This document shows positions 41,316 to 61,364 of a stretch of DNA of 64,000 bases, piece by piece. The stretch spans positions 434,001 to 498,000 of the forward strand of contig NZ_FQWW01000003.1 in assembly GCF_900129795.1 (NCBI RefSeq), read 5' to 3'. The first letter of the stretch is position 1, and every line of letters starts with the position of its first letter. Source of the DNA: Flavobacterium sp. CF108. Its GTDB lineage: Bacteria; Bacteroidota; Bacteroidia; Flavobacteriales; Flavobacteriaceae. The position numbers and the translations under genes were made by a program. Below the pieces are notes generated by a model. That model had not been told where the DNA came from, searched no databases, and was given only the letters and a program-made list of their open reading frames with translations.

Positions 41316-44300
41316 TTAAAAATTAAAGTTTACACCAATTGCAGTTGTTCTCGCTGGAGGTGCTGAATAAAAATCTTCTCCAATTCCGGCATCATCTCTT
41401 CTTGCTTCAGGATCGTTTCCTTCGTAGTTTGTAAAGGTCAATAAGTTAACTGCAGTAAAATAAACTCTTAAACTACTCATTCCTAAATTTTTCAGTACGT
41501 CCTTAGGAAGTGTATATCCTAAAGTTAAATTTCTTAAACGAACAAAATCGGCTTTGTCAAGATAACGAGAAGAATCTTGTGTACCGTTTGATCCTCCAAA
41601 TCTGGCCTGCGGTACATCTGTAATATCACCAGGATTCTGCCATCTGTTTAGCTGATCGGCTGTTTGGTTATCAAAATAATCAGCCGCAGTTGATTGATAA
41701 ATCCCTGCTGAATTATAGATACTTGCGCCCCATTCTCCCTGAAATGTAAAGGTGAAGTCAAAACCTTTGTAAAGAATTGTGTTTGTTAAACCAGACATTA
41801 AAGTAGGGAAAGGGTTTCCTGCAATAATACGTTCTGCTTCACTATAATTACTTGTTTTAGTACGGTCAAGTGAGCCATCAGCATTTTTAGTGTTTTTGTA
41901 AAATAAAGCATCACCATTTTCTGGATCAACTCCAGCGTATTCAACTAAATAGAAAGATGAAATATTTTCTCCAACTCTATTAATATTGTATGAAACTATA
42001 ATGTCTCTGTTATCGTTTGGAAGTGATTTTACCTTTGATTCATTTGTTGTCAAATTGAAACTAGTATTCCATTTAAAGTTTTCAGTATCAATATTTTTAG
42101 TGTTGATAGTAAGTTCAAAACCATTACTTCTTATTTTTCCAATATTTTTATTGATAGAAGCGGCTCCAGAACTTATTGGTAACGGAACTTCAAAAAGCAA
42201 CCCGTCAGTATCTTTTTGGTAATAATCTGCTTCAATAGAAAATCGGTCTATAAAACCAATTTCAAAACCAAAATCAGTTTGAGCTGATTTTTCCCAAGTC
42301 AAATCATTGTTTCCAGGCTGATCAAATGTAAGCCCTGATTTTAAGTTATAAGGATTTGGTCTGTAAAGCTGACGTGAAGCAAAATTTCCAATTTCGGCAT
42401 TTCCTAATTTACCCCAGCTTCCTTTTATTTTTAAATTTGAAATAGCTTTACTATCCTTTAAAAACTCTTCTTGCGAAATAACCCATCCGGCAGAGAACGC
42501 CGGGAAAACTCCAAATCGTTCATTTTTTCCAAAACGAGATGAGCCATCACGACGAATACTGGCTTTTAAAAGATATTTATTCATGTAAGAATAATTTAAT
42601 CTTCCAAATTGAGAAACAAAAGCATAATCAGTTTCATTTCCGTGGCCTTCATTTACTTCGGCACCACCGTCAACAGTTTGAAAATCATCACTAGAGAAAT
42701 AAATACTGTTTACATCCTGATATCTTCTGTTGTATTTGTTGAATTCCATACCAGCTACAACATTAAAAGTATGTTTTTCTGCAAATGTTTTATCAAATGT
42801 AAAATAGTTACTCGAAACATAATTTTCTGTATTTACAGAAGTCGCAAATACAGCCCCGTCTGTTGCCATAAAAGGAGCATTTTTACCTTGCCAGTAATCT
42901 TCAGTCTGAGATAAAAGATCGTATGAGAAATCAGAATTAAACTTTAATGAAGAAAGTATTCTAAATTCGGCAAAAAGTTTACCTGTAAGTCTGCGCATAA
43001 TAGTTTTCCAAAACGTATTATCTTTTGCTAAAAGGTAGTTTGAATATTCTGTATTTGGGTTTGCACTTCCGTCTTCTAATCTTGCCGGTGAAATAGGCGC
43101 CTGTGCAACTGATTGAAGTGGAGAAGAAAAGGAGTTATCATCCTGAACCCTGTGAATTAAAGATCTTGAAAAACCAAGGTTCATTCCTAATGTTAAACGA
43201 TCTGTAACTTTATGCGATACGTTTGTTCTGGCCGTAAATCTTTCTAACGTATTACTGTCAACAATACCAGTTGTATTATTATACGCACCAGAGAAGAAAT
43301 ACTTAGTTTTCTCATCTCCTCCAGAAGCAGAAAAATCAGCATCTGTAGTATAACCCGTTCTTAAAGCAATGTCCTGCCAGTCTGTATCAACTTCGCCATT
43401 TCTCCAATCCGTTCCCTGAGATAAGTATTCTAACTCATCTTCAACAGATTCTAAATCGTTGACGTTTCTTCCGGCTTCCTGTAATAATTCAACATATTGT
43501 TTTGCATTCAGCCATTTTCTTTTGTGTGTAGCTTCACTAACTCCCTGCGAAAGATTTACTGTGAAAGTACCTTTTCCTTCACGGCCTTTTTTGGTAGTAA
43601 TTAAAACAACTCCGTTTGCTCCACGCGCACCGTAAATTGCTGCAGAAGACGCATCCTTTAAAACATCTATCGATTCAATTTCATTCGTACTTAAAGTCAA
43701 TAAAGGGTTTGTTGGTGCACCGTTGCTTGATTCATTATCATTAATTAACGGAATTCCGTCAAGAACATACAAAGGCTGCGTTCCCGCACTGATACTCGCC
43801 GCACCACGCACACGAATATTAATACCACCATCAACCTTACCATTTGTCTGCGTAATTTGAACCCCGGCCAGTTTACCAACCAAAGCATTTTGCACGTTTG
43901 AAACCGGAATCTGCTGGATATCTTTTGCTGTTACACGCGCGATATTATCTGTTAAGTTTCTTTTAGATTGTGTTCCGTATCCCACAACAACTACAGTTTC
44001 AAGTTCATTTTGAACTTCATCCAGCTGAATTGTAATGTTATTAGAAGCAGGAACTTCTACGGTTTTATAACTTACATAGGTTACAATAAGTATTTCGCCT
44101 TTTTTTGCGGCAATTTTAAAAAGACCGTCAAAATCAGTTTGGGCACTGATATTTTTTCCCTGTACTACAATATTTGCTCCGGGAATTGGCAGGCCTTTTT
44201 TATCTGTTACTTTTCCGGAAATAGATTCTTGTGCTGCAGCTATTTGTACAAATAGTAAAAACAACCACAAGCAGTGTTTTAATTTAATTTTCATATTCAT
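41316..44300 (-). CDS. SusC/RagA-family TonB-dependent transporter (second pair)
   Basis: A 994-residue importer. Signal peptide (about 1-24, ending AAAQ), carboxypeptidase-regulatory-like domain (about 26-100; VTDKKGLPIPGANIVV), plug with ELETVVVVGYGTQSKRNLT and SIDVLKDASSAAIYGARGANG, then the barrel ending in AIGVNFNF. The frame opens with two Met (MNMKIK); the second, MKIKLKHCLWL, is an equally good start. It forms an operon with susD and is near no degradative gene, with rocD on the other side of a terminator. Confidence 0.96.
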   Translation of the reverse strand: MNMKIKLKHCLWLFLLFVQIAAAQESISGKVTDKKGLPIPGANIVVQGKNISAQTDFDGLFKIAAKKGEILIVTYVSYKTVEVPASNNITIQLDEVQNELETVVVVGYGTQSKRNLTDNIARVTAKDIQQIPVSNVQNALVGKLAGVQITQTNGKVDGGINIRVRGAASISAGTQPLYVLDGIPLINDNESSNGAPTNPLLTLSTNEIESIDVLKDASSAAIYGARGANGVVLITTKKGREGKGTFTVNLSQGVSEATHKRKWLNAKQYVELLQEAGRNVNDLESVEDELEYLSQGTDWRNGEVDTDWQDIALRTGYTTDADFSASGGDEKTKYFFSGAYNNTTGIVDSNTLERFTARTNVSHKVTDRLTLGMNLGFSRSLIHRVQDDNSFSSPLQSVAQAPISPARLEDGSANPNTEYSNYLLAKDNTFWKTIMRRLTGKLFAEFRILSSLKFNSDFSYDLLSQTEDYWQGKNAPFMATDGAVFATSVNTENYVSSNYFTFDKTFAEKHTFNVVAGMEFNKYNRRYQDVNSIYFSSDDFQTVDGGAEVNEGHGNETDYAFVSQFGRLNYSYMNKYLLKASIRRDGSSRFGKNERFGVFPAFSAGWVISQEEFLKDSKAISNLKIKGSWGKLGNAEIGNFASRQLYRPNPYNLKSGLTFDQPGNNDLTWEKSAQTDFGFEIGFIDRFSIEADYYQKDTDGLLFEVPLPISSGAASINKNIGKIRSNGFELTINTKNIDTENFKWNTSFNLTTNESKVKSLPNDNRDIIVSYNINRVGENISSFYLVEYAGVDPENGDALFYKNTKNADGSLDRTKTSNYSEAERIIAGNPFPTLMSGLTNTILYKGFDFTFTFQGEWGASIYNSAGIYQSTAADYFDNQTADQLNRWQNPGDITDVPQARFGGSNGTQDSSRYLDKADFVRLRNLTLGYTLPKDVLKNLGMSSLRVYFTAVNLLTFTNYEGNDPEARRDDAGIGEDFYSAPPARTTAIGVNFNF

Positions 44301-44623
44301 TTCGTTTAAATTAGTCTCTCAAATATCCTAATTTATTGTTAATTTTTAATGATAATTTAACATTAAAAATAACAATTATGACTAGTTTTGTGATATTGAT
44401 AACTTTTACATACGTGTTTGTTGGTTTTTGATGAAAATTGTTTGATTTTTTGATAAAAATGTAAGGCAGAATAATTTCGTTAAAAAAAGTGCTGTTTTTT
44501 TAGCGCCAAAAAACGTAGTTTTAATAAAAAAAGCGACTGTTATAAAACAATCGCTTTCAGGGTATAATTACTTAAAATATCAAAAAAAGCAATTATCATT
44601 TTTGAGAAGAGTTCTCATTATTT
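44301..44623. other. Gap between susC and the cysteine desulfurase gene
   Basis: The 323-bp stretch is very AT-rich and carries the leader of susC and the terminator of the desulfurase operon at 44530-44557. No ORF or repeat of note is seen. Confidence 0.6.
44530..44557 (-). terminator. Terminator of the cys/encapsulin operon
   Basis: Arms AAAGCGA-c-TGTT and AACA-a-TCGCTTT pair with one mismatch and are followed by T residues on the minus strand, 67 bp past the desulfurase stop. Confidence 0.8.
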
Positions 44624-46558
44624 TTAGAATCTAACTTTTTTAAGTTCCCAAATGGTTTTAATAAAAGTATCAACATCATCGGTTGTATTATAAAATGCTA
44701 ATGAAGGACGAACGGTAGTTTCAACTCCCATTCGGCGTAAAATAGGCTGCGCACAATGATGTCCGGTTCTTACTGCAACACCTTCTTTGTTTAAAGCCTG
44801 TCCAACCTGATCGTTTGAATAACCTTGTAAATTAAAAGACAATACACTTGCTTTATCTTTGGCAGTTCCAATCAATCGTACACCCGGAATTTCTTTTAAA
44901 AGCCTTGTAGCATATTCTAACAAATAATGCTCATATTGACCAATAGCTTCAATTCCTAATTTGGTTACATAATCGATTGCTGCGCCAAGACCAATGGCAT
45001 CGGCAATATTTCCGGTTCCAGCTTCAAAACGATTCGGAGCTTTGTGGTATTTTATTTCCTCAAAAGTTACGTCCTGAATCATGTTTCCGCCAGATTGATA
45101 CGGCTGCATTTCGTTTAGCAAATCTTCTTTTCCGTATAAAGCTCCAATTCCTGTTGGACCAAATAATTTATGTCCGGAGAAAACCAGCCAATCTGGATTT
45201 AAATCCTGAACATCTACTTTCATATGTGAAACAGATTGTGCGCCGTCGATTAAAACTTTTGCGCCGGCAGCATGTGCCATTTCAACTATTTTTTTCGCTG
45301 GTGTTACGGTTCCCAATGCATTTGAAACTTGTGTAAAAGAAACCAAACGTGTTTTTGAATTTAGCAGTTTTGCATATTCGTCTAGCAGAATCTGACCGTC
45401 ATCATCAACAGGAATTACTCTTAATTTCAAACCTTTTTTATCTGCAAGGCGTTTCCACGGAACAATGTTCGCATGATGCTCCAGATTACTCACAATAATT
45501 TCATCTCCAGAATTTAAATTCTGTTCGCCCCAGGTTGCCGCAACAAGATTTATTCCTTCTGTTGCACCTCTTACAAACACAATTTCGTTTACAGAAGAAG
45601 CATTCAAAAAAACTTTTACTTTTTCACGAGCGGCTTCATACGCATCAGATGCGCGGGCAGCTAATTCATGTGCCGCACGATGAATGTTTGAATTTTCATG
45701 TTCGTAGAAATACGCAATTCGATCAATAACCGATTGCGGTTTCTGCGTTGTTGCTGCATTATCAAACCAAACTAATGGTTTTCCGTTTACGGTTTCTCTT
45801 AGAATTGGAAAATCTTTTTTTACCAATGCTGCATCAAAATGATGTCCTGTAAAAAGATTGATTTCTTTGTGTTCAAAAGAGTTTCCAACAATGATATCTG
45901 TACTTCTTTTATCAAAAGCGAAAGGATTCTGATCCAGAAAATAGTAAGAAGATGTTGTTTCATTTCCGTTTAAAGGAAAATCTTCGCGTTTTTTAAACTG
46001 TGTATCAACAGATGCCAAAGCAGCTTGTAATTCAATTTCAAAAGAAGAATTCTCTGTTTGAAATGGCAGATATTGATTGTTTAATAACAACGATGAAAAA
46101 ACAGATTCTTCATTCAATTGAGCAGGTTTTGCATTTTTCAAATTAATATCATGAAATCCGGTATGCGGATCATTGATATTTAAATCATGGTTTTCCTGAA
46201 CTCCAGACGACGAATTTTTGCTTTGCGGATCAAATCCTGCCCCGGCATTTGGGTATAAAACAGAAGCTCCTGTATTTCCATAATTTAATGCAGAAGGAGA
46301 AGCTCCAAAACCGCTAAATGCAGGCGGCGCAGGCGATGTACTCGACGGACTTACTGCGGGAATCTGACCTAACTGATCAAGGTTTCCCGTATGCAATATC
46401 GTTTCTGCAATTTTTGTCGCACGCGGGTGTTCGGCTTTATCCGGACTTAATGATATTTCTTTTGGAAATTCATATGGTAAAGCTTTGAACAATTCGTTTG
46501 CTAAATTTTGCAAATCGTCGATGTTTGGTAAACCGTTGCTGTTAATATTTGTACTCAT
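44624..46558 (-). CDS. Encapsulin-cargo cysteine desulfurase (SufS-type) with long disordered N-terminus
   Basis: A 644-residue protein. The catalytic part (about 243-644) is a SufS-like PLP enzyme that takes sulfur from cysteine as a persulfide: PLP Lys464 in SGHKLFG, sulfur-accepting Cys602 in RTGHHCAQP. Ordinary SufS has about 410 residues; the extra 242 are low-complexity (Pro/Ser/Gly/Ala-rich at 65-110, Asn-rich around 115-165), with a helix-like segment IDDLQNLANELFKALP at 13-28. Family 2A encapsulin cargo desulfurases have exactly this disordered cargo-loading extension. The start overlaps the shell gene by 17 bp. No SufE or SufU acceptor is beside it, consistent with storage rather than Fe-S assembly. 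Confidence 0.95.
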   Translation of the reverse strand: MSTNINSNGLPNIDDLQNLANELFKALPYEFPKEISLSPDKAEHPRATKIAETILHTGNLDQLGQIPAVSPSSTSPAPPAFSGFGASPSALNYGNTGASVLYPNAGAGFDPQSKNSSSGVQENHDLNINDPHTGFHDINLKNAKPAQLNEESVFSSLLLNNQYLPFQTENSSFEIELQAALASVDTQFKKREDFPLNGNETTSSYYFLDQNPFAFDKRSTDIIVGNSFEHKEINLFTGHHFDAALVKKDFPILRETVNGKPLVWFDNAATTQKPQSVIDRIAYFYEHENSNIHRAAHELAARASDAYEAAREKVKVFLNASSVNEIVFVRGATEGINLVAATWGEQNLNSGDEIIVSNLEHHANIVPWKRLADKKGLKLRVIPVDDDGQILLDEYAKLLNSKTRLVSFTQVSNALGTVTPAKKIVEMAHAAGAKVLIDGAQSVSHMKVDVQDLNPDWLVFSGHKLFGPTGIGALYGKEDLLNEMQPYQSGGNMIQDVTFEEIKYHKAPNRFEAGTGNIADAIGLGAAIDYVTKLGIEAIGQYEHYLLEYATRLLKEIPGVRLIGTAKDKASVLSFNLQGYSNDQVGQALNKEGVAVRTGHHCAQPILRRMGVETTVRPSLAFYNTTDDVDTFIKTIWELKKVRF

Positions 46559-47462
46559 GATACTTTCCTATTTCTACATCTTCTAAAACAGCAATAGCAT
46601 CATCTACTAAAATAGCCAAAGAACAATAAAGAGATACTAAATAAGAAGCAATGGCTTTTTCATTAATTCCCATAAAACGAACTGATAATCCAGGAGATTG
46701 TTCGCCTTGTAAACCAGGCTGAATTAATCCGATAACACCTTGACGGCTTTCACCTGTTCTTAAAAGAATGATTTTTGATTTTCCTTTTACGATTGGCAAT
46801 TTATCCGAAGGAATAAGCGGAATTCCTCTCCAGGTTAAAAATTGTGATCCAAATAATGAAATTGTTGGAGGCGGAACACCACGACGTGTACATTCGCGTC
46901 CAAAAGCCGCAATGGCTAACGGATGTAAAAGGAAAAATCCAGGTTCTTTCCACACTTTTGTCAATAATTCATCTAAATCATCTGGAGTTGGAGCTCCGGT
47001 TCTTGTTTTTATAATTTGAGATGGCGCAACGTTGCTTAATAATCCATAATCTTTGTTATTGATTAATTCGCTTTCCTGACGTTCTTTGATTGTTTCGATA
47101 GCTAAACGAAGCTGTTCTGAAATCTGATTGTATGGTTTACTGTATAAATCAGAAACACGGGTATGAACCTCGACAATGGTTTGAACTGCAGCCAGATTGT
47201 ACTCTCTTGGATTCTCGATATAATCGACAAAAGTATTCGGTAAAATCCTTTCGTCGCGTGCAGAACAATCAACCTCGATGTGGTTTGCGTTTTTAACTTT
47301 ATTCAAACGAAACACACCCGATTCTACTGGTGTCCAATGCAAAAGATGCGTTAACCAGCGTGGGGTAATAGTTCCAATTTGAGGAACAGTACGAGTTGCG
47401 ATCGCTAATTGTCTTGCTGCAACATCGCCTAATGCGGTCTGTTGTTTTGGTAAATCTGCCAT
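46542..47462 (-). CDS. Family 2A encapsulin nanocompartment shell protein (SrpI type)
   Basis: A 306-residue HK97-fold shell protein. The sequence is diagnostic of Family 2A: the N-arm TALGDVAARQLAIATRTVPQ, the ITPRWLTHLLHW segment, PVESGVFRLNKV, a central TRTGAPTPDDLDELLTKVWK helix, PTISLFGSQFLTWRGIPLIPSD, and the end VSLYCSLAILVDDAIAVLEDV. Homologues include SrpI of Synechococcus, induced on sulfur starvation. Shells are T=1 capsids of 60 subunits that package the cysteine desulfurase encoded next. No phage gene is near, so this is no prophage capsid. It follows cysK by about 100 bp without a clear promoter of its own. Confidence 0.96.
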   Translation of the reverse strand: MADLPKQQTALGDVAARQLAIATRTVPQIGTITPRWLTHLLHWTPVESGVFRLNKVKNANHIEVDCSARDERILPNTFVDYIENPREYNLAAVQTIVEVHTRVSDLYSKPYNQISEQLRLAIETIKERQESELINNKDYGLLSNVAPSQIIKTRTGAPTPDDLDELLTKVWKEPGFFLLHPLAIAAFGRECTRRGVPPPTISLFGSQFLTWRGIPLIPSDKLPIVKGKSKIILLRTGESRQGVIGLIQPGLQGEQSPGLSVRFMGINEKAIASYLVSLYCSLAILVDDAIAVLEDVEIGKYHEYKY

Positions 47463-47566
47463 AATTTTAAGGTTTTTCGGTTATAATTTTGATTAAAATT
47501 TTTCTAGCTTTATTGAATTAAATTTATGGGTTTTTATTCAATTATAAGCTTTTGATTTGTAATTTG

Positions 47567-48487
47567 TTAAGAGAAAAAATCGAATAATTCCTCTACAGAT
47601 AGATATCGCTCTCCGGTATCATAATTAAAAGTCAGGATTACGGCATCTTCGGGAATATTTTTCAGTTTTTTTGATACGGCTGCTAATGCTGCTCCAGTCG
47701 AAATTCCTCCAAAAATCCCTTCTTCTTTAGTTAATTTTTTTGCAAAATTAAAAGCATCATTTTTTTCAATAGTCACAATTTCATCGATATATTCTCTGTT
47801 AAAAACTTCAGGAATAAATCCGGCGCCAATTCCCTGCAATGGGTGAGGAGCAGGAATACCGCCGCTTAATACTGGCGAAAGTGCAGGCTCAACGGCAATC
47901 GTTTTTAAATTAGGAAAATGCTGTTTTAATATTTTAGAAACTCCGGTAATGTGACCGCCCGTTCCCACGCCTGTAATCAGATAATCAATTCCGTCCGGGA
48001 AATCAGCTAAAATCTCTTGTGCGGTGGTTCTTTCGTGAACTGCGACATTGGCAGGATTTGTAAATTGCGAAGGCAGAAAAGAATTTTTAATCGTTGCAGC
48101 TAATTCTTTGGCTTTTTCAACCGCTCCCGAAGTTCCTTTTTCTCTCGGAGTCAAAACATATTCTGCGCCGTAAGCTTCGATAATTTTTCTGCGTTCCACA
48201 CTCATCGATTCCGGCATAACGATAATTACTTTGTAACCTTTTACGGCTGCCACTAACGAAAGTCCAATTCCGGTATTTCCCGATGTTGGTTCAATAATAA
48301 TAGAATCAGGATTTAAAAGTCCTTTTGCCTCAGCATCTTCAATCATTGCCAGTGCAATTCTGTCTTTGATACTCGATCCCGGATTTGCTTTTTCTAATTT
48401 AATCCATACCTCGTGGGTTTTAAAAAGCTTGTTGAGCTTGATGTGCGGCGTATTGCCAATGGTTTCTAAAATGTTCTGATATTTCAT
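47567..48487 (-). CDS. cysK: Cysteine synthase A (O-acetylserine sulfhydrylase)
   Basis: A 306-residue PLP enzyme that joins O-acetylserine and sulfide to cysteine. PLP Lys41 in SSIKDR, substrate loop PTSGNTG (67-73), GTGGHITG phosphate loop near 176-183, and C-terminal YDTGERYLS are all canonical. Length typical of CysK. It starts 13 bp after cysE and is followed by the encapsulin shell gene, so cysteine synthesis and cysteine desulfuration are encoded in one transcript. Confidence 0.96.
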
Positions 48488-48500
48488 GTGTTTGATATTT

Positions 48501-49325: not shown

Positions 49326-49367
49326 ATTGATTTGATTTTATGATTAGAAAAATTAGGCTTGTTTTTT

Positions 49368-49507
49368 AAACACATAGAGACATAGAATTTGTTACGGATA
49401 AAGGCGTTTCACTTGTTTAAATGCACATAGAAGGCTATATGAAAGAAATGTATTTCTTTATTGTAGTCTTTTTTACATCTAAAAATATTCTATGTTTCTA
49501 TGTGTTT
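49368..49507. repeat. Inverted repeat between sulfatase and cysE
   Basis: The 21-bp arms AAACACATAGAGACATAGAAT (49368-49388) and its near complement (49487-49507) enclose about 100 bp with no gene. It could act as terminator or attenuator between the two genes; the sequence is of a type repeated in intergenic regions of this organism group. Confidence 0.65.
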
Positions 49508-49515
49508 AAATAATT

Positions 49516-51171
49516 TTATTTTTTAAGTGCCGCGCCGCCCGGCATTGTTTCTGGTTTTAATTTGAATTTACTGTATTCTACCACTCCGGTTTTGTCTGCC
49601 CATTCAAAATACGAAGCCGAAAGTTTGTTTACAATTCCGGGATTCTGTTGTGCTACATTAGTAGTTTCGCCTCGATCCGTTTCTAGATCGTACAATTCCC
49701 ATTCATAAGAAGGATAAATCGAAACCAATTTCCATTTTCCATCACGAACGGCTCTGTTTCCAGCTCTTTCCCAAAATAATGGTGCGCCTCTATCGACCTG
49801 TGAAACATTATTAAATAAAACAGGCAACAAACTTTTTCCAACCAAAGCGTTTGTCGTCACGCCATTATATTCTTTTGGGTAATCTATTCCGGCTAATTCG
49901 TAGAAAGTAGGAGCGAGGTCAATAATATGTCCAGTTCCTTTATCAATTCTTCCCGCTTTTATTTTGGATGGAAACCAAGCAATAAACGGAGAGCTGAAAC
50001 CACCTTCGTGCATATTATTTTTATATTGCTGAAGTGGAGTATTCGATAAATAAGCCCAGTTTTGTTCCTGATAATCGAATGAACCCGAAGTTCCAACTGG
50101 CCCGTCATTTCGAACCAAACCTCTTCCAAGCGGATTATAAGTATTGAATCCACCTTGAGCGCCATTGTCTGAAATAAAAACAATCAGCGTGTTTTTATCT
50201 TTTTTAAGCGCTTTTAGTTTGTCCAGAACTTTGCCAACGTTTTGATCCATATTGTCGACCATTGCGGCGTATACTTCCATTTTAGCTTTCCAGAATTGTT
50301 TTTCGTCGTAGCTTAACTTATTCCATTCCGGAACTTCAGGATCTCTTGGCGATATAGTTTGATCGGCAGGTAAAATTCCGCTGGCTTTTAGTTTCTGGAT
50401 TCTCTTTTCTCTTAAAACATCCCAGCCTTCGTCAAATTTGCCTCTGTATTTGGCAATATCAACAGCTTTCGCCTGCAGCGGCCAGTGCGGCGCCGTAAAA
50501 GCTAAGTATAAAAAGAAAGGTTTATTTTCTTTGTTTTGTTCGTCTAAGAAAGTAACAGCATTATTCCCAATTTCATCTGTAAAATAATACGAATCATCTT
50601 TTGGATACAGTTCTTCGTTATTACGGATTAATTTTACCGGATAAGGCGTTTTTCCGAAAGGCAAAGGTTTTGTATCAAAATAATTCGATGCGCCTTTTAA
50701 GATTCCGTAAAATTTATCAAAACCTCTTTGATTAGGCCATTGTGCCTGATCTTCAGAACCAACGTGCCATTTTCCTGATAAAAGAGTGCTGTAACCGCCG
50801 GAACGGAAAACTTCTCCCAAAGTCAAAGATTCTTTATTTAAATAGCCCTGATAAGCTGGTAAACCCAAATTAACATCGAAGAAACCAACTCCGGCTTTAT
50901 GCTGATATTGTCCGGTTAGGAGGGAAGCGCGTGTTGGCGCACAAATCGAGTTATTGTAGAATTCGCGTAAGCGTAAACCTTCTGTAGCTAGCTTATCGAG
51001 ATTTGGTGTTTTAATTTCGGAACCATAATTTCCTAAATCCGAATAACCCATATCATCAACCAAAATCAAAATAATATTGGGTTTTGATTCTGTTTGAGCA
51101 TGTAACTCGTGAGAAGTTACAACTCCGGTTAAGAGAATAGAAAAAAGAAGTTTTGTGATTTTTGTATTCAT
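49516..51171 (-). CDS. Exported arylsulfatase-type sulfatase (S1 family)
   Basis: A 551-residue sulfatase with signal peptide (1-25, ending LHAQ). The formylglycine site is Cys77 in CAPTRASLLTG, with metal residues in ILVDDMGYSD (38-40), a His in KWHVGS, and FISDNGAQGG. Sulfatases hydrolyse sulfate esters after oxidation of the Cys by an FGE or anSME-type maturase, neither of which is in the window. A promoter at 51572-51602 gives a leader of about 390 nt with a Cys-rich mini-ORF. Downstream is cysE. Confidence 0.93.
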   Translation of the reverse strand: MNTKITKLLFSILLTGVVTSHELHAQTESKPNIILILVDDMGYSDLGNYGSEIKTPNLDKLATEGLRLREFYNNSICAPTRASLLTGQYQHKAGVGFFDVNLGLPAYQGYLNKESLTLGEVFRSGGYSTLLSGKWHVGSEDQAQWPNQRGFDKFYGILKGASNYFDTKPLPFGKTPYPVKLIRNNEELYPKDDSYYFTDEIGNNAVTFLDEQNKENKPFFLYLAFTAPHWPLQAKAVDIAKYRGKFDEGWDVLREKRIQKLKASGILPADQTISPRDPEVPEWNKLSYDEKQFWKAKMEVYAAMVDNMDQNVGKVLDKLKALKKDKNTLIVFISDNGAQGGFNTYNPLGRGLVRNDGPVGTSGSFDYQEQNWAYLSNTPLQQYKNNMHEGGFSSPFIAWFPSKIKAGRIDKGTGHIIDLAPTFYELAGIDYPKEYNGVTTNALVGKSLLPVLFNNVSQVDRGAPLFWERAGNRAVRDGKWKLVSIYPSYEWELYDLETDRGETTNVAQQNPGIVNKLSASYFEWADKTGVVEYSKFKLKPETMPGGAALKK

Positions 51172-52194: not shown

Positions 52195-53454
52195 TTAACT
52201 AAATAGCAAAAACGCAATAATCAACGTAACAATCACATTGAATAATTGTGCAATTAAAAAGGCGTATAACGGTTTACGGCTGTTATTGCTCAATAAATCT
52301 TTAAAATTAGTTTCTAAGCCGATACTTGTAAAAGCTAATGCAAACCAAATTCCCTGCAGGTTTTTCAAACTGTCTTTTACGCTGTCTCTGGTTTCGGGCG
52401 TAATCAAAAATGAAAAGATTAAAGAAGCACCAATAAAACCAATTACAAATTTTGGAAAGCGTTCCCAAATTACTTTTAAAGTTGGTTTTGATTCTACAGC
52501 TTCTGAAGTAGTATTATGCGAATACGTCCAATAAACAGAAATTGCAAAAGCCGCTAATCCTAATAAAACGTTTTGAGAAAATTTTACAATTGTACTAATT
52601 TTTAAAGCCGTTTCACCAACTAAAGTTCCAGACGCTGCAACGGCTCCAGAAGTGTCGATACTTCCGCCAAGCCAGGCTCCGGTTACTTCTTCGGGAAAAT
52701 TGAAATATTTGGCAATAATGGGCATGAAAATCATCATGGGAATTGCGGTTACCAAAACGATTGAAATGACATACGATAATTTCTTTGAATCACCTTTTAT
52801 TGCGCCCGAAGTTGCAATGGCAGCAGAAACACCGCAAATTGAAACAGCACTAGAAATCATCATGGTTAATTCATCATCAACTTTTAATTTTCGGCAAAGC
52901 CAAAAGGCAAAATACCAGACGGATATCACAACAACCAATGCCTGAATTAAGCCTAATGAACCTGCCTTTAATATATCTGAAAAAATTACTCCGGTTCCCA
53001 ATAAAACCAATCCGATTTTTACAAAGACTTCTGTAGAAAGCGATGAACGAAACCATTCCGGAAGTTTGAAGAAATTCCCGATCGCTAAACCAATTATCAA
53101 ACTGAAAATTACGGCTTCTAAATTGATGGATTTTATAGCTGAATTTCCGGCGAGAATAAGTGCAATTATGGTTAAAAGATAGACTATCGGAAAAGTAAAT
53201 AGAAAATATTTTACGGATCTTCCAATTAAAAATGCTCCGATTGTACCAATTGAAATGAGATATAAAAATTGAATTAAAAGGATTTTAAGATTTGCTAAAT
53301 CAAATACTTTCGTAAATAAATCAGAAGTGTTTGACCAGCTAAAAACGGGAACTTCGGGAAGAAATATAAAAAGGGAAATCCCGATGATAATAAATCCTAA
53401 AATTACGACTGTCCAGTCTTCGTGAATATTAAATTGTTTGGGTTGAGTTGACAT
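52195..53454 (-). CDS. YeiH-type putative sulfate exporter family transporter
   Basis: A 419-residue inner-membrane protein with about ten to eleven hydrophobic helices. The family is recognisable from LEAVIFSLIIGLAIGNFFKLP, GLVLLGTGVIFSDILKAG, SSAVSICGVSAAIATSGAI and GAWLGGSIDTSGAVAASG. Family members are annotated as sulfate exporters mostly by association with organosulfonate metabolism; transport has rarely been shown. Location among four sulfatases and cysEK supports a role in sulfate or sulfite balance. It is flanked on both sides by repeat-filled gaps, so it is probably transcribed alone. Confidence 0.88.
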   Translation of the reverse strand: MSTQPKQFNIHEDWTVVILGFIIIGISLFIFLPEVPVFSWSNTSDLFTKVFDLANLKILLIQFLYLISIGTIGAFLIGRSVKYFLFTFPIVYLLTIIALILAGNSAIKSINLEAVIFSLIIGLAIGNFFKLPEWFRSSLSTEVFVKIGLVLLGTGVIFSDILKAGSLGLIQALVVVISVWYFAFWLCRKLKVDDELTMMISSAVSICGVSAAIATSGAIKGDSKKLSYVISIVLVTAIPMMIFMPIIAKYFNFPEEVTGAWLGGSIDTSGAVAASGTLVGETALKISTIVKFSQNVLLGLAAFAISVYWTYSHNTTSEAVESKPTLKVIWERFPKFVIGFIGASLIFSFLITPETRDSVKDSLKNLQGIWFALAFTSIGLETNFKDLLSNNSRKPLYAFLIAQLFNVIVTLIIAFLLFS

Positions 53455-53799: not shown

Positions 53800-55413
53800 T
53801 TACAAATCAACAAAGTATTTTTGTTTACCAAAGTCGAATTCATAATAAGTCAAATTAGGCCAAAGTGGTTTGATTAAACCTTTTTCCCAAGTTTGTAAAG
53901 CAGTTTGTAATTCTTTTACTTTTTCAGGATTTTTTGCAGCCAGATCTGTAGTTTCAGATTTGTCTTTTGATAAATTATACAACCATTTTTCATGCGTTTT
54001 TCCGCTGATGATTAATTTCCAGTCGCCGCTTCGAATTGCTTTTGCATCGCCTGAACGCCAGTATAAATCCTTGTGAGCTTCTTTATTGTTATTGACAACA
54101 TCTACTAAATCAACTCCGTCATAAACTCGGTCTTTAGGTAAACCAGAATGTGTAACGGCTGAAATTGTGCTAAAAATATCCAAAGAACTTACGGGAGTTT
54201 TGTAAACAGTATGCGGTTTGATTTTTCCCTTCCACGAAAGTGCAAACGGAACATTTATACCACCTTCAAAATGAGAAAATTTTCCCCCTTTTAATGGTGC
54301 ATTTGTTGTCGCAAAAGTATAATCGGCGCCACCATTGTCGCTGATAAAAAAGATTAAGGTGTTTTCTTCTAAACCTTCTTTTTTTACTTTTTTCCTAATT
54401 CTTCCCACGGCATCATCAAGTGCGCTGATCATAGCAAAATAGACGCGTTTGTTTTCGTCTTTTACATTCGGGAAGCGATCGTAATATTTTTTGCGAACCT
54501 GAAATGGAGTATGCGGCGAATTAAACGGAACGTATAACAAAAATGGTTTGTTTTTATTTTTGTCGATAAAAGCTTCTGCTTCATCTGCAAAAGTTTCGGT
54601 TAGATATTTTTTATCTTTTATGATAGTGGTATCGCGGCGAATTTGTCCAATTCCAACGCGTCCATTCCCCCAAATCGTTTTATCGGTAAAATCTTTGTGA
54701 TGATGATTTATGATATCCGGATTGTCATCTTCTGGAGTATAAAGCGAAAATGCCTGATAAAATCCGTAATGATAATCGAAACCTCTGTCTAAAGGAAAAA
54801 ATCCTTTGTTGTGACCCAAATGCCATTTTCCGATAATGGCAGTATTGTAACCTTGTTTTTTAGCTAAATCAGCAAACGTAATTTCAGATTTTGGCAAACC
54901 CTGCGTTGCGATCGAAGCTTCGTTTGGATAATTTATTTTGTCGTTTAATCGCCAGCTGTTTGTGTTGATTAAATATTTAAAAGCATAATATTCTAAATTG
55001 TTTTTCGGATAACGATCTCCCGGCTGATATTCATGTCCGAAACGTTCCTGATAGCGGCCAGTCAATAATCCCGCACGTGATGGCGAACAAATCGATGCCG
55101 AAACATATCCATCTGTAAAAGTTACTCCAGAAGCTGCAAGTGAATCAATTTGTGGCGTTGGTGTTGATTTTCCTCCGTAAAGAGAAATATCATATTTGCC
55201 TAAATCATCGGCAACTAGAATGATAATATTTGGCTTTTTTTCTGAAGTTGTATCTTTTTGAGAAAGAAATGCGGCCTTTCCTTCGGCTAGTTTTTCATCG
55301 GCTTTAATTAATGTTCCATCGGTATTTATGGGCCAGAATAAAAATGCTGCGATGATAAGAAGCACTAATAAAATAGGAACAACAATCTTGGTTATTTTTT
55401 TATAGTTTGCCAT
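53800..55413 (-). CDS. Membrane-anchored or exported sulfatase (S1 family)
   Basis: A 537-residue sulfatase. The N-terminus has a hydrophobic segment (about 10-27) with no obvious cleavage site, so it may be anchored in the membrane. FGly site Cys109 in CSPSRAGLLTGRY, Mg/Ca ligands in VADDLGKYD, KWHLGHNKG and FISDNGGADY. Closest in motif spacing to GalNAc or aryl-type S1 sulfatases, but the substrate cannot be given. It follows the rhodanese-thioredoxin gene by 260 bp containing palindromes. Confidence 0.92.
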   Translation of the reverse strand: MANYKKITKIVVPILLVLLIIAAFLFWPINTDGTLIKADEKLAEGKAAFLSQKDTTSEKKPNIIILVADDLGKYDISLYGGKSTPTPQIDSLAASGVTFTDGYVSASICSPSRAGLLTGRYQERFGHEYQPGDRYPKNNLEYYAFKYLINTNSWRLNDKINYPNEASIATQGLPKSEITFADLAKKQGYNTAIIGKWHLGHNKGFFPLDRGFDYHYGFYQAFSLYTPEDDNPDIINHHHKDFTDKTIWGNGRVGIGQIRRDTTIIKDKKYLTETFADEAEAFIDKNKNKPFLLYVPFNSPHTPFQVRKKYYDRFPNVKDENKRVYFAMISALDDAVGRIRKKVKKEGLEENTLIFFISDNGGADYTFATTNAPLKGGKFSHFEGGINVPFALSWKGKIKPHTVYKTPVSSLDIFSTISAVTHSGLPKDRVYDGVDLVDVVNNNKEAHKDLYWRSGDAKAIRSGDWKLIISGKTHEKWLYNLSKDKSETTDLAAKNPEKVKELQTALQTWEKGLIKPLWPNLTYYEFDFGKQKYFVDL

Positions 55414-55673: not shown

Positions 55674-56381
55674 TTATTTCGAGGCCAAAGCCAAATCAAC
55701 ATCATTTTTCAAATCGCCTAAACCGTCTTTTTTGAAAACGATTTTACCATTTTGATATAAGATCAAAGTAGGGAAGACCTTTACGGTTTTTAAATCGGCA
55801 ATTACTTGCGGGCTGGTTTCTAATTCGATTTCTACGATTTTTAAATTTTCGCCATATTGTGCTCTAATGGTTTCCAGAACTGGTTTTACTTTTATACACG
55901 CACCGCAGTATTTAGAACCAATATCAACCAAAACAGTTTTATTATCAGCAATGATTTTGTTGTATTCCGCTAAGGTTAGTTTGCTTTTAGAATTGGCATA
56001 AAAAGGTTTTCCGTTTCCAATCCAATTCGCAATTCCGCCTTCTAAACTGTAGGCTTCTTTAAAACCTTTTTTTAATAAATCGTCTGCTAACCAAACACTT
56101 CTTCCGGCTCCAATTGAGTAAGTAAAAACGGGTTTAGATTTGTCTAGTTTTGCAACTTGTTCTGCATAATCTTTTGACTCTAAATTGAAGTTTACTGCGC
56201 CATTAATATGGTTTAAGGCAAATTCTTCTGGACCGCGTGCATCAATTATCTGCGGCTTTTTTTCAGCCTGAATTTTACTGTAATAAACATCTAATGAAAC
56301 GGTAGTTGTACTTTTATTTTGCGAAAAACCTACTATTGTAAACAGCAGGATTAGTGTGGTAATATTTATTTTATTTTTCAT
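55674..56381 (-). CDS. Exported rhodanese-thioredoxin fusion, rhodanese site degenerate
   Basis: A 235-residue protein with signal peptide (1-21). Residues 25-128 form a rhodanese domain (IIDARGPEEFALNHINGA, SLEGGIANW), but the active loop reads YSIGAGRS (88-95): the persulfide-forming Cys is Ser89, so sulfur transfer by the normal mechanism is unlikely. Residues 130-235 form a thioredoxin domain with CGAC at 159-162 and cis-Pro204. Predicted periplasmic, perhaps a thiol-disulfide protein whose rhodanese part only binds. Located in the sulfur locus between the fatty-acid-hydroxylase and a sulfatase gene. Confidence 0.9.
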   Translation of the reverse strand: MKNKINITTLILLFTIVGFSQNKSTTTVSLDVYYSKIQAEKKPQIIDARGPEEFALNHINGAVNFNLESKDYAEQVAKLDKSKPVFTYSIGAGRSVWLADDLLKKGFKEAYSLEGGIANWIGNGKPFYANSKSKLTLAEYNKIIADNKTVLVDIGSKYCGACIKVKPVLETIRAQYGENLKIVEIELETSPQVIADLKTVKVFPTLILYQNGKIVFKKDGLGDLKNDVDLALASK

Positions 56382-57829: not shown

Positions 57830-59752
57830 TTATTTTGCAGTTTCTGTATCTGCAGGTTTAGTTACTTGTTTCACTAAATCTTGTAATGTTTTACCTTTAT
57901 CAGCTCCTGTATTGTGGATTCTTCTGTTGTAAACATCCTGCCAGTCAATCAATGGATAAACATTGTTTTCTTTTGCCTGTTCGTCAAATAATTTTTGAAG
58001 TTCGGCTAACTTTTCAGGATATTTTTTAGCCAGATTGTTACGTTCGTTGAAATCTTCGTTTAAGTTGTATAATTCCCAAACATCAGTATCAAAATTGCTT
58101 GCAGCAGGTTTTTCGTTTTTACCTATTGATTGTTTTACAGCAAATGAATCTGGTAAATGCGCCGCAGCAGCTTTCCATCCATCTTTATAAATAGCTCTGT
58201 TTCCGAAGATATAGTAGTACTGAACTTTGTGTAAAGATTCTGCTTTTGGATTGTCTAAAGAAGCTTGGAAAGAAGAACCCTGAATAATATCTTGTTTAAT
58301 TCCTTTGATATATTCCGGAGCTTTAATTCCTGCGATTTCTAAAGTTGTTGGAAGTAAATCTGTTACGTGGCTGTATTGATTTCTGATTCCGCCTTTGTCT
58401 TTAATTCCGTTTGGATAAAAAACAATTAACGGGTTACGAGTTCCACCTTCAGAATGTGCATCTTGTTTCCAGTTTTTAAAAGGAACGTTTGTTGCCTGCG
58501 CCCATCCTAACGGATAATTTGTATTTAAACCTTTTGCAGTTCCAATTTCTCCAATATTATTTAAATTGCTTTGAAGATTTTCTGCTTCTGTTTTTCCTTG
58601 AGAAAATAAACTTTGGTTGATTGTTCCTTGTAAAGTTCCTTCTTTACTTGCTCCGTTATCTCCAATAGCAACAAAAATTAAAGTGTTGTCAAGCTGTCCG
58701 CTTTCTTTTAGATAATTTACAACTCTTCCAACTTCAGCATCCGTATAAGTCAGGAATCCAGCGTAAGCTTCCATGAATCTTGCGTATACTTTCTTTTCAT
58801 CCGGAGTTAATTTTTTCCAATCTGTTATAAGAGCATTACGTTCCGGTAATACCGCGTTAGCAGGAACAACACCTAATTTCTTTTGGTTTGCCAATACTTT
58901 TTCGCGATACACATCATAACCTTCGTCAAATTTTCCTTTGTAAGGCTCGATCCATTTTTCAGCAACCTGATGAGGTGCATGAACAGCTCCCGGCGCATAG
59001 TACAAAAAGAATGGTTTTCCAGGTGCCGCTTTTTGCTGTTTTTTAATGTAGCTGATCGCTTTATCTGTAATTAATTCATTTAAGTGACGTCCATCTGGTT
59101 TCACATGTGCCTGATCTTCCACTAAATCAGGATTGTATTGATCAGTTTGAGAACCAAGGAATCCGTAGAAATGGTCGAAACCTTTTCCGGTTGGCCATCT
59201 GTCAAACGGACCAGCGTCTGTAGCATCTTCATCTGGAGTTACACCGTATTTACCAACGGCAAAAGTGTTGTATCCATTTTCACGTAAAATCTCTGCAATT
59301 GTTCCTTTATCAGATGGAATTCTTCCGTCCCAGCCCGGAAAACCAGCTGATAAAATAGTGTGTGAAAATCCGCTTTCGTGTACTCTTCCAGAATTTCTTC
59401 CAGTTAATAATGCTGCACGCGTTGGCGCACAAATTGCAGTTGTATGAAAGTTGGTATAACGTAAACCGTTATTTGCCAGATTTTCAAAAGTTGGCGTTTG
59501 AATTAAGCCGCCAAAAACACTTGCAGCTCCAAATCCAACATCATCTAACAAAATCCAAACAATATTTGGAGCTCCTTTTGGTGCTTTTACAGGCTCTGGC
59601 CAATATTCTTTTGAATCGGCTAATGTTTTACCAATTGTTCCTTTGAACTCTTGAGTATCTTGTGCAAAGCCAAATTGTGCAGCTAGCAATGCAGTAATCA
59701 AAAGCCCTTTTCCAGAGCTTTTGATTGTACTGAAATTTTTAAAATTTTTCAT
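57830..59752 (-). CDS. Exported sulfatase (S1 family, large AtsA-like)
   Basis: A 640-residue sulfatase with a signal peptide (about 12-30, ending FGFAQ). FGly site Cys108 in CAPTRAALLTGRN, metal ligands in LLDDVGFG, VGKYGVTPD and VAIGDNGASKEG. The start and length, and features such as TDLLPTTLEIAGI, resemble the Pseudomonas AtsA-like arylsulfatases, which are made in sulfate starvation. It is last in the susC, susD, sulfatase, sulfatase operon and follows the preceding gene by 43 bp. Confidence 0.93.
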   Translation of the reverse strand: MKNFKNFSTIKSSGKGLLITALLAAQFGFAQDTQEFKGTIGKTLADSKEYWPEPVKAPKGAPNIVWILLDDVGFGAASVFGGLIQTPTFENLANNGLRYTNFHTTAICAPTRAALLTGRNSGRVHESGFSHTILSAGFPGWDGRIPSDKGTIAEILRENGYNTFAVGKYGVTPDEDATDAGPFDRWPTGKGFDHFYGFLGSQTDQYNPDLVEDQAHVKPDGRHLNELITDKAISYIKKQQKAAPGKPFFLYYAPGAVHAPHQVAEKWIEPYKGKFDEGYDVYREKVLANQKKLGVVPANAVLPERNALITDWKKLTPDEKKVYARFMEAYAGFLTYTDAEVGRVVNYLKESGQLDNTLIFVAIGDNGASKEGTLQGTINQSLFSQGKTEAENLQSNLNNIGEIGTAKGLNTNYPLGWAQATNVPFKNWKQDAHSEGGTRNPLIVFYPNGIKDKGGIRNQYSHVTDLLPTTLEIAGIKAPEYIKGIKQDIIQGSSFQASLDNPKAESLHKVQYYYIFGNRAIYKDGWKAAAAHLPDSFAVKQSIGKNEKPAASNFDTDVWELYNLNEDFNERNNLAKKYPEKLAELQKLFDEQAKENNVYPLIDWQDVYNRRIHNTGADKGKTLQDLVKQVTKPADTETAK

Positions 59753-59795: not shown

Positions 59796-61364
59796 CTATT
59801 TTATTCTATTCCAATCTTCGACACCTACTTTTACAGACCATTTTTGATGTAACTCAATTAGGGTTTGGAGTAGTTTCGGTTCTAATTTTGCTACGTTTTT
59901 TGTTTCTGTTCTATCTGCAGTAAGATTGTACAATTCCCAAGGCTGATTGTTTTCGGCTACTGCTTTCCATTGATCTTTTCTTACTGCTTTGCTGCCTTCA
60001 TGTTCCCAAAACAAGGCTTCATGTACATCAGATTGCTGTCCTTCAAATTCCTTTTTTAAGCTGATTCCTTCTAAAGGTGTGAGGTTTTTTCCTTGAAAAG
60101 CATCAGGGTATTGAAAATCTGCATATTCCAGACAAGTCGGGAAAATATCAATCACATGACTTACTCGGTTACTTACTGTTCCGGCTTTAATATGCTTTGG
60201 ATAGTAAGCAATAAAAGGAGAAGCAATTCCGCCTTCGTGGGTATTCTTTTTGAATAGTTGAAAAGGCGTGTTGCTCACATTTCCCCACGGACTTTCGTAA
60301 CTATCAATAGATACAGCAGAACCTGGTGTTCCATTTTTTTGTGTAACATAATTCCAGTTTTTTACATCATCGGCACTTCCTCCATTATCTGAAAGAAAAA
60401 GAATTAGGGTATTATCTTCTTCTCCCAACGTCTTGACTTTCTGCAGGATTTCTCCAATTCCGGCATCCATTCTGTCTATCATGGCGGCGTAAATTGCCAT
60501 TCGGGTATCCCATTTGTCTTTTTCTTCGGTGCTTAGTTTTTCCCAATCCGGCACTTTTTCAAAACGATTAGATAAGTCCCAATTTTTATCAATAATTCCT
60601 TGTTCTTTTAATTTTTTAAAACGGCTTGCCCTCAATTTATCCCATCCTTTTAGGTATTTACCTTTGTATTTTGCAATATCTTTCGGCAATGCCTGAATGG
60701 GCCAATGTGGAGCATTATAAGCAACATACAGAAAAAATGGTTTTTGCTGATTGTGCTGTTTTTCTAAAGAACTGATGGCAAAATTGGTAATTTCCTGAGT
60801 CAGATAAGTTGAAGTATCCGTGCGGATAATTTCTTTATCTCCTTTCAAAAAAGTAACTTTTCTTCCGTCATTATATAAAGGCTGCGAGTTAAAATAACTG
60901 CTCCCGTTGTTTTGTAATGTAAAAGAATCATCGAATCCTCTATTAACCGCCCAGGCTGATGGCACTAAACCAACGTGCCATTTTCCTGAAACAATCGTAC
61001 TGTATCCTGCCTGTTTAAGTGCTTGTCCAATGGTGATACAATGCTCGTTTAAATATCCCTGATAAGCCGGAAATCCTTTATCCTGAACCATATCGCCAAC
61101 ACCTGCCTGATGCGGATACAAACCCGTTAGCAATGAAGCCCGCGAAGGACAGCAGCGGCCTGCATTATAAAACTGCTTTATAATAAGCCCGTTTTTAGCA
61201 AGTTTATCCAGGTTTGGAGTTTTAATTTCTGAGCCAAAAGCACCAATATCTGAGTAACCTAAATCATCCGCCAAAATGACGATGATGTTAGGCTGCTTTT
61301 TCTGTGCAAATAGGTGAGATTGTGCAGCAACCAATAGGGCAAGGATGAACAGTTTTTTAATCAT
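59796..61364 (-). CDS. Exported sulfatase (S1 family)
   Basis: A 522-residue sulfatase with signal peptide (1-20, ending LFAQ). The FGly site is Cys71 in CCPSRASLLTG, with Cys72 as an unusual middle residue. Metal sites include ILADDLGYSD, KWHVGLVPS and FLSDNGGSAD. Its pattern closely parallels the 49516-51171 sulfatase (YPHQAGVGDM / YQHKAGVGFF), suggesting duplication. It starts only 4 bp after the susD stop, so import and sulfatase genes share a transcript. Confidence 0.94.
   Translation of the reverse strand: MIKKLFILALLVAAQSHLFAQKKQPNIIVILADDLGYSDIGAFGSEIKTPNLDKLAKNGLIIKQFYNAGRCCPSRASLLTGLYPHQAGVGDMVQDKGFPAYQGYLNEHCITIGQALKQAGYSTIVSGKWHVGLVPSAWAVNRGFDDSFTLQNNGSSYFNSQPLYNDGRKVTFLKGDKEIIRTDTSTYLTQEITNFAISSLEKQHNQQKPFFLYVAYNAPHWPIQALPKDIAKYKGKYLKGWDKLRASRFKKLKEQGIIDKNWDLSNRFEKVPDWEKLSTEEKDKWDTRMAIYAAMIDRMDAGIGEILQKVKTLGEEDNTLILFLSDNGGSADDVKNWNYVTQKNGTPGSAVSIDSYESPWGNVSNTPFQLFKKNTHEGGIASPFIAYYPKHIKAGTVSNRVSHVIDIFPTCLEYADFQYPDAFQGKNLTPLEGISLKKEFEGQQSDVHEALFWEHEGSKAVRKDQWKAVAENNQPWELYNLTADRTETKNVAKLEPKLLQTLIELHQKWSVKVGVEDWNRIK

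What the first reader, a model, noticed from the sequence alone, without database searches (positions are those of the whole stretch)
44624..47462. Family 2A encapsulin with a cysteine-desulfurase cargo: a sulfur-storing nanocompartment
The shell gene (306 residues, diagnostic N-arm and P-domain motifs) and the SufS-type cargo gene with a disordered extension of about 242 residues are adjacent and overlap by 17 bp. Family 2A compartments package such desulfurases and, in Acinetobacter, were shown to hold elemental sulfur. A flavobacterial example tied to cysE and cysK and to four sulfatases is a new setting for this organelle.
Basis: partly seen in the sequence, partly recalled or inferred. 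Interest (0 to 1): 0.9.

Follow-up and report, generated by a model that had tools for sequence, protein, structure and literature searches.

The report
Known sulfur nanocompartment in Flavobacterium
This is a two-gene protein nanocompartment of a well-described kind that packages a sulfur-releasing enzyme; it is a clear but ordinary member, and the mildly new point is that in Flavobacterium it often sits as an on/off module in a sulfatase gene island.

Summary
The shell gene (46542-47462, minus strand, 306 aa) and the cargo gene (44624-46558, minus strand, 644 aa) overlap by 17 bp. Both score above the cut-offs of dedicated NCBIfam models: Family 2A encapsulin shell, 530 bits against 380; Family 2A cargo cysteine desulfurase, 903 against 800. 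The shell is 73% identical to SrpI of Synechococcus elongatus, and a SrpI structure is solved. Both published cargo motifs have counterparts.

The claim that the setting is new is largely wrong. The type locus on an S. elongatus plasmid already reads cysK-cysE-srpI-cyd-rhodanese. A published survey counts 111 Bacteroidetes Family 2A desulfurase systems and names serine O-acetyltransferase as an enriched accessory.

What I did not find in print is the sulfatase link. In Flavobacteriaceae 45 of 58 shell loci have a sulfatase within the fetched stretch; in other Bacteroidota 3 of 22. Twenty shell-less Flavobacterium genomes carry the island's YeiH-like gene, 18 of them with most of the island, and none has the shell-desulfurase pair there. 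The module is therefore dispensable. Its sulfur-storage role here is inferred from homologues, not shown.

The parts
46542..47462 (-). Family 2A encapsulin shell protein (SrpI-like), 306 aa
   Evidence: NF041162 530.3 bits (cut-off 380), PF19307 E 1e-106, PDB 6x8m SrpI E 1.2e-151
44624..46558 (-). Family 2A encapsulin cargo cysteine desulfurase, 644 aa: N-terminal extension of about 240 aa plus SufS-type domain
   Evidence: NF041166 903.1 bits (cut-off 800), matched over residues 6-639, extension included; SufS TIGR01979 554.9 bits (cut-off 475.1)
46475..46513 (-). Cargo motif 1, residues 16-28 (LQNLANELFKALP), counterpart of published LARLANEFFS
   Evidence: alignment of 23 cargo proteins; position; published motif
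45923..45955 (-). Cargo motif 2, residues 202-212 (TSSYYFLDQNP), counterpart of published AASPYYFLDG
   Evidence: alignment of 23 cargo proteins; position; published motif
46542..46558 (-). 17-bp overlap of shell end and cargo start. In 58 Flavobacteriaceae loci the cargo match starts at +904 from the shell start in 54 and at +901 in 4 whose shell match is 3 bp shorter
47567..48487 (-). CysK, O-acetylserine sulfhydrylase
   Evidence: TIGR01139 395.9 bits (cut-off 350.95); the only gene over that cut-off in the genome
48501..49325 (-). CysE-like serine O-acetyltransferase (additional copy)
   Evidence: TIGR01172 174.2 bits, below its cut-off of 210.65; NF041874 EpsC 152.9 bits, above its cut-off of 150; a second CysE-like gene lies at C8:885500
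44529..44558 (-). Terminator-like hairpin with T tail, 65 bp after the cargo stop codon
   Evidence: 13 pairs; consensus scan only, 7 such sites found in the region against 3.9 expected
49516..51171 (-). Sulfatase 1 (surroundings: sulfatase island)
   Evidence: PF00884 E 8.5e-63
52195..53454 (-). YeiH-like membrane protein (PF03601), used here as marker of the sulfatase island
   Evidence: PF03601 E 5.4e-53; TIGR00698 101.4 bits, below its cut-off of 232.6
53800..55413 (-). Sulfatase 2 (surroundings)
   Evidence: PF00884 E 6.8e-63
55674..56381 (-). Rhodanese-thioredoxin fusion with a signal-like N-terminus (surroundings)
   Evidence: PF00581 and PF00085; signal judged by eye only
57830..59752 (-). 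Sulfatase 3 (surroundings)
   Evidence: PF00884 E 2.2e-62
59796..61364 (-). Sulfatase 4 (surroundings)
   Evidence: PF00884 E 1.2e-62

Best explanation
It is a Family 2A encapsulin operon of the cysteine-desulfurase type. The shell protein builds a closed icosahedral particle, and the long N-terminal extension of the desulfurase binds its inside so that the enzyme is packed. CysE and CysK, in the same run of genes, make cysteine from serine and sulfide; the packed desulfurase takes sulfur off cysteine, leaving alanine, and the sulfur is held inside the shell as a reserve or passed on. In Flavobacterium this module often sits at one place at the end of an island of sulfatases, TonB/SusD-type uptake proteins and a YeiH-like transporter, so it may bank sulfur won from sulfate esters. 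Shown here: the identity of shell and cargo, the motifs, the gene order, the repeated link to the sulfatase island and its dispensability. Inferred from studied homologues: assembly, loading, desulfurase activity and sulfur storage. Inferred from position alone: the link between storage and sulfatase-derived sulfur.
For: Dedicated NCBIfam models for shell and cargo both exceed their cut-offs, and the cargo match includes the extension. The shell matches solved shells named SrpI or Major membrane protein I over its length and is 72.9% identical to SrpI of S. elongatus. Both published cargo motifs have counterparts. HRAAH, DGAQS, SGHK and GHHCAQP are present in the window cargo (that they hold active-site residues is recalled). 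Shell and cargo are adjacent in 80 of 80 named loci and in 38 of 38 loci of other genus genomes (the sets share genomes). The genome has another SufS-like desulfurase at C16:544224 and another CysE-like/CysK-family pair at C8:885500-886907, so this set is extra, not housekeeping. The type system is upregulated on sulfate deprivation (passages of PMC8049743). The sulfur-storage paper (Benisch 2024) is known to me by title from reference lists and one summarising passage; the paper itself is not held.
Against: Nothing here shows assembly, loading or sulfur content in this organism. The AlphaFold model of the shell failed (mean pLDDT 33.4, shallow alignment), so it gives no support. The rhodanese of the type locus has no counterpart in the operon itself; the nearest rhodanese domain (55674-56381) looks secreted. 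CysE and CysK are not always near the shell: in 58 Flavobacteriaceae loci CysE was found in 36 and CysK in 34. The sulfatase link is rare outside Flavobacteriaceae (3 of 22), so it is not part of the basic mechanism.
Confidence: 0.82

Rival explanations
1. A Family 2A compartment whose job is not sulfur storage but restricting the desulfurase: sulfur is handed only to a chosen acceptor, or excess cysteine is broken down safely.
For: The 2021 survey proposes channelling to a co-regulated rhodanese (passages of PMC8346489). cysE/cysK beside it fit control of the cysteine pool as well as storage.
Against: No rhodanese gene in the run cysE to cargo; the homologous compartment is reported to store elemental sulfur (title and one citing passage only).
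Confidence: 0.15
2. The link to sulfatases is a hitchhiking effect: the module was inserted at a tolerant site and shares no physiology with the island. (This rival concerns the link only and can be true together with the best explanation of the compartment.)
For: Only 3 of 22 non-Flavobacteriaceae Bacteroidota shell loci have a sulfatase in the fetched stretch, and 13 of 58 Flavobacteriaceae loci have none. Shell presence is patchy on trees of flanking genes, and on the aminotransferase tree no more clustered than in shuffles. Genome size and relatedness confound the co-occurrence statistic.
Against: 38 of 39 shell-bearing genus genomes carry the YeiH-like island marker against 20 of 260 without the shell, also in some genomes where shell and marker lie more than 10 kb apart. 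Both are sulfur chemistry.
Confidence: 0.4
3. The shell gene is a phage major capsid protein from a prophage remnant.
For: Encapsulins share the HK97 fold with capsids (PMC8346489 abstract); faint matches exist.
Against: Family 2A profile 530 bits. None of 14 of the 21 listed ORFs (80 aa or more, 36000-58000) that were scanned against Pfam is a phage gene. The gene is paired with the desulfurase in 80 of 80 loci.
Confidence: 0.01

Closest known systems
SrpI/CyD Family 2A encapsulin of Synechococcus elongatus PCC 7942 (plasmid locus; PDB 6x8m and 6x8t 'Protein SrpI')
   Same: Shell 72.9% identical over 98%; desulfurase cargo with a weakly conserved extension (19%) and a conserved catalytic part (68%); cysK and cysE directly upstream of the shell
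   Different: Order cysK-cysE instead of cysE-cysK; no shell/cargo overlap (234-bp gap); a rhodanese gene follows the cargo; plasmid-borne; no sulfatase among the 15 annotated features of the stretch. Its own first cargo motif aligns poorly with the window's
Family 2A encapsulin of Acinetobacter baumannii (reported to store sulfur)
   Same: Shell 72.6% identical over 98%
Other Bacteroidota Family 2A desulfurase systems (Runella, Niabella, Chitinophaga, Emticicia, Terrimonas and others)
   Same: Shell 86-92% identical and paired with the desulfurase in 22 of 22
   Different: Sulfatase nearby in only 3 of 22; CysE in 11 of 22; CysK in 3 of 22

Membership tests
Family 2A encapsulin (cysteine-desulfurase type) | Shell matches the Family 2A profile over its length and above cut-off | tested here: met
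   NF041162 530.3 bits against 380, profile positions 1-295 of 295. It also passes the 2B cut-off (425.8 against 400), but its best stretch covers only positions 208-449 of 450
Family 2A encapsulin (cysteine-desulfurase type) | No cNMP-binding domain fused to the shell (that would make it 2B; definition from passages of PMC8346489) | tested here: met
   Only PF19307 found by Pfam; 306 aa
Family 2A encapsulin (cysteine-desulfurase type) | Adjacent SufS-like desulfurase with a long unannotated N-terminal extension | tested here: met
   NF041166 903.1 bits against 800, residues 6-639
Family 2A encapsulin (cysteine-desulfurase type) | Two conserved motifs in the cargo extension (LARLANEFFS, AASPYYFLDG; found in most, not all, such cargos) | tested here: met
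   LQNLANELFKALP and TSSYYFLDQNP (judged by eye on the alignment)
Family 2A encapsulin (cysteine-desulfurase type) | HK97 fold of the shell | tested here: inconclusive
   AlphaFold model failed, mean pLDDT 33.4; the fold follows only from the whole-length sequence match to solved shells
Family 2A encapsulin (cysteine-desulfurase type) | Assembles, loads the cargo through the extension, stores sulfur | not testable with these tools
   Bench experiment needed
Phage major capsid protein | Matches capsid families better than encapsulin families and lies among morphogenesis genes | tested here: not met
   ORFs

The most novel reading that the evidence does not exclude
In Flavobacterium the encapsulin pair, often with cysE and cysK, is a plug-in sulfur bank for a sulfatase island: bacteria that scavenge sulfate from sulfated compounds gain and lose the storage module repeatedly at one fixed site next to the class-III aminotransferase gene, which gives paired natural strains with and without the bank.
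Probability: 0.4. Interest if true: 0.4.

Novelty: new member of a known kind. Interest (0 to 1): 0.25.

Why it matters
The compartment itself is known. The useful addition is a natural comparison set: Flavobacterium relatives that share the sulfatase island, some with and some without the storage module, would let one test whether such compartments help cells that live on organic sulfate. It also places Family 2A systems beside a possible upstream sulfur source in one genus.

Tried and rejected
Phage capsid reading: rejected on profile scores and on the neighbours scanned.

Structure check of the shell: one AlphaFold job on 19 close relatives (A2, 86-98% identical to the window) gave mean pLDDT 33.4 and pTM 0.26. 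The alignment is too shallow; I ran no fold search on it and draw nothing from it.

New-setting claim for cysE/cysK: rejected, the type locus has both.

A conserved promoter or regulator site upstream of the shell: aligning about 160 bases upstream in 56 sequences (the window and 55 of the 58 Flavobacteriaceae loci) showed no long conserved block, partly because the upstream gene differs between loci. Promoter-like sites in 44300-49700, including the one upstream of the shell (47570-47541), are no more frequent than in shuffles (15 found, 17.6 expected).

Remnants of shell or cargo at empty sites: none at E below 0.5 in 20 stretches. For cysE and cysK the same search gave CysK in L095 (85% identical), a weak CysK match in L107 (29%, E 6e-4) and a 29-residue CysE match in L098 (E 0.32); I count only the first.

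Worry that single-sequence queries miss distant sulfatases outside Flavobacterium: a profile grown from the four window sulfatases and their hits, run on all ORFs of at least 150 aa, gave the same counts, 45 of 58 and 3 of 22.

Papers. Searches: encapsulin with cysteine desulfurase and Family 2 (5 papers), elemental sulfur, Flavobacterium and cysteine, srpI with srpG and srpH (none), the storage-paper title phrase, sulfatase, Bacteroidota, sulfur starvation, and Flavobacterium with arylsulfatase and sulfur starvation (none). I saw passages of PMC8049743, PMC8346489, PMC10960027 and PMC11946847 and only listings of the rest. None of what I saw describes the sulfatase link. The library holds open-licence papers only, supplements were not available and I read no paper whole, so this is weak evidence of absence.
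Full report
What is there. On the minus strand the window reads cysE (49325-48501), cysK (48487-47567), shell (47462-46542), desulfurase (46558-44624). The last two overlap by 17 bp, and a terminator-like hairpin follows 65 bp after the desulfurase stop. The shell scores 530.3 bits against NCBIfam NF041162, the Family 2A shell model with cut-off 380. The desulfurase scores 903.1 bits against NF041166, the model of the Family 2A cargo desulfurase, with cut-off 800. Pfam calls the shell SrpI-like, E 1e-106. Among solved structures its five best matches are named SrpI or Major membrane protein I: 6x8m E 1.2e-151, 8t6r E 1.7e-150, then 9ksl, 8wol and 8won. The desulfurase's best solved relative is 8kg1, E 4.1e-176, over the catalytic part only.

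Phage alternative. Against 50,697 phage records the shell finds 28 records, of which 20 were listed. Two, at 72.6%, are filed as 'Acinetobacter phage MD-2021a' and have a shell and an annotated sufS under the match; I take them for bacterial DNA. The other 18 listed are capsids, a hypothetical protein or unannotated, 25-28% identical, E 3e-5 to 8e-3. PHROGs gives two weak matches, 1.2e-4 and 0.049. Of the 21 ORFs of at least 80 aa at 36000-58000, 14 were scanned against Pfam and none is a phage gene. The reading is rejected.

Cargo anatomy. I aligned the window desulfurase with 22 others from cyanobacterial, proteobacterial, Aliarcobacter and Bacteroidota loci. The catalytic part (window residues 239-644) is 64-98% identical; the extension (1-238) is 14-86%, and in the 16 non-Flavobacterium rows 14-46%. 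Two islands stand out: LQNLANELFKALP at residues 16-28 and TSSYYFLDQNP at 202-212 (positions). They correspond to the two motifs published for most SrpI-associated desulfurases, LARLANEFFS and AASPYYFLDG (passages of PMC8049743). Not every row keeps both: the Aliarcobacter protein has no aligned first motif and a poor second one, Azospirillum lacks the second, and S. elongatus itself aligns poorly at the first. HRAAH, DGAQS, SGHK and GHHCAQP are all present in the window protein; that they hold the PLP lysine and the active cysteine is recalled.

Is the setting new? The S. elongatus plasmid record reads cysK, epsC (serine O-acetyltransferase), srpI, cyd, rhodanese, all on one strand. Aliarcobacter cibarius has rhodanese, shell, desulfurase, cysE, a hypothetical gene, cysK; Azospirillum argentinense has shell, desulfurase, cysE; Variovorax has rhodanese, epsC, a regulator, shell, desulfurase. 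These are four of the 32 plasmid records matched. The 2021 survey (passages of PMC8346489) counts 1281 Family 2A desulfurase operons in 12 phyla, 111 of them in Bacteroidetes, and names serine O-acetyltransferases and rhodaneses as the most enriched accessories. So neither the host phylum nor cysE/cysK is new.

Distribution. In the genus of the window the shell is in 39 of 299 sampled genomes, all 39 over the cut-off. In the class it is in 5 of 395, 4 over the cut-off, two of these being the window's genome and one other of its genus. The genus is Flavobacterium by the names of the nearest hits in a named collection: of 436 confirmed loci the best 80 were kept. By record title I put 58 of them in Flavobacteriaceae (Flavobacterium, four unnamed Flavobacteriaceae and one titled [Flexibacter] sp. 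ATCC 35103) and 22 in other Bacteroidota. Shell and desulfurase sit together in 80 of 80 and in 38 of 38 stretches fetched from the other shell-bearing genus genomes. The two sets share genomes and are not independent.

The sulfatase island. The window's four sulfatases are PF00884 proteins and are the four best of 12 over the cut-off in the genome. Of the 58 Flavobacteriaceae loci, 45 have a sulfatase within the fetched stretch (up to 10 kb each side), 36 a CysE, 34 a CysK and 39 the YeiH-like gene; of the 22 others, 3 have a sulfatase, 11 a CysE, 3 a CysK and 2 the YeiH-like gene (matches of E 1e-8 or better covering at least 30% of the query). A more sensitive profile search gave the same sulfatase counts, 45 of 58 and 3 of 22. 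Some stretches are short because the contig ends, so these are lower bounds. Reading, 31 of 38 genus loci carry at least one of the YeiH-like gene and sulfatases 1 to 3 in the stretch; the other seven are L050, L062, L066, L067, L074, L080 and L083, of which L050 and L083 are whole short contigs.

Occupied and empty sites. The YeiH-like gene is in 58 of 299 genus genomes, one of them (G207) only as a truncated piece. It is in 38 of 39 genomes with the shell and 20 of 260 without (Fisher p 3e-32; each drew 299 genus genomes, which I take to be the same set). The p-value ignores relatedness and genome size and must not be read as a sum of independent evidence. The close rhodanese-thioredoxin homologue (66% identity or more) behaves alike: 37 of 39 against 25 of 260. 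I fetched the YeiH-like locus of all 20 shell-less genomes. In 18 of 20 most of the island is there in much the same order, some lacking one or two of its sulfatases; in 2 (L101, L107) the YeiH-like gene stands without it. None of the 20 has shell or desulfurase there, and 16 of the 18 show both the island and the class-III aminotransferase gene that flanks the window's module, so they span the empty site. L095 keeps a CysK in place. No shell or desulfurase fragment was found at E below 0.5.

Gain or loss. On a tree of the YeiH-like protein (26 with, 19 without the shell) presence needs at least 10 changes, 4 of them forced by well-supported branches; on the aminotransferase tree (33 and 15) 12 changes, 6 forced. 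Label clustering is above chance on the first tree (7 of 500 shuffles as low) but not on the second (155 of 500). So the module comes and goes repeatedly. The trees were quick, unrooted builds and cannot tell gain from loss; rows without a near-full-length protein in the fetched stretch were left out.

Function. Desulfurase activity, loading and storage are carried over from homologues. The elemental-sulfur paper (Benisch and others 2024) was not held; I saw its title in reference lists and a passage in PMC10960027 saying that such systems store sulfur. The genome keeps another SufS-like desulfurase (C16:544224) and another CysE-like/CysK-family pair, so the operon is an extra set. The rhodanese domain protein of the island starts with a signal-like stretch (by eye), so it is probably not a cytosolic sulfur acceptor.

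Verdict. Observation confirmed, identity right, novelty overstated. A new member of a known kind, with one modest addition: a recurrent, dispensable placement in a sulfatase island of Flavobacterium.

Noticed in passing
window 52195-53454: The YeiH-like protein scores well below the TIGR00698 cut-off (101.4 against 232.6 bits) though well above the PF03601 cut-off; it may be a distinct transporter subfamily tied to sulfatase islands in Flavobacterium.
   Followed up: partly
window 55674-56381: Rhodanese-thioredoxin fusion with a signal-like N-terminus inside a sulfatase island; homologues of 66% identity or more track the island in the genus.
   Followed up: partly
window 56472-57539: Fatty-acid-hydroxylase family membrane protein (PF04116) kept inside the sulfatase island; weakly like ornithine lipid hydroxylase OlsE, 45 bits against a cut-off of 475. 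Its place in sulfur scavenging is unexplained.
   Followed up: partly
window 46542-47462 against L169 and L174-L194: The shell stays 86-92% identical between Flavobacterium and 22 other Bacteroidota loci, while the cargo extension falls to 25-46% in the 10 of them aligned; either strong constraint on the shell or transfer between lineages.
   Followed up: no
Phage records CAKLQH020000001 and CAKLQF020000001: Two records filed as 'Acinetobacter phage MD-2021a' contain a Family 2A shell with an annotated sufS and are probably bacterial DNA.
   Followed up: no
   Followed up: no
L095 (G077): A lone CysK (85% identical) remains at the site where shell and desulfurase are absent, a possible intermediate of module loss or gain.
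   Followed up: partly
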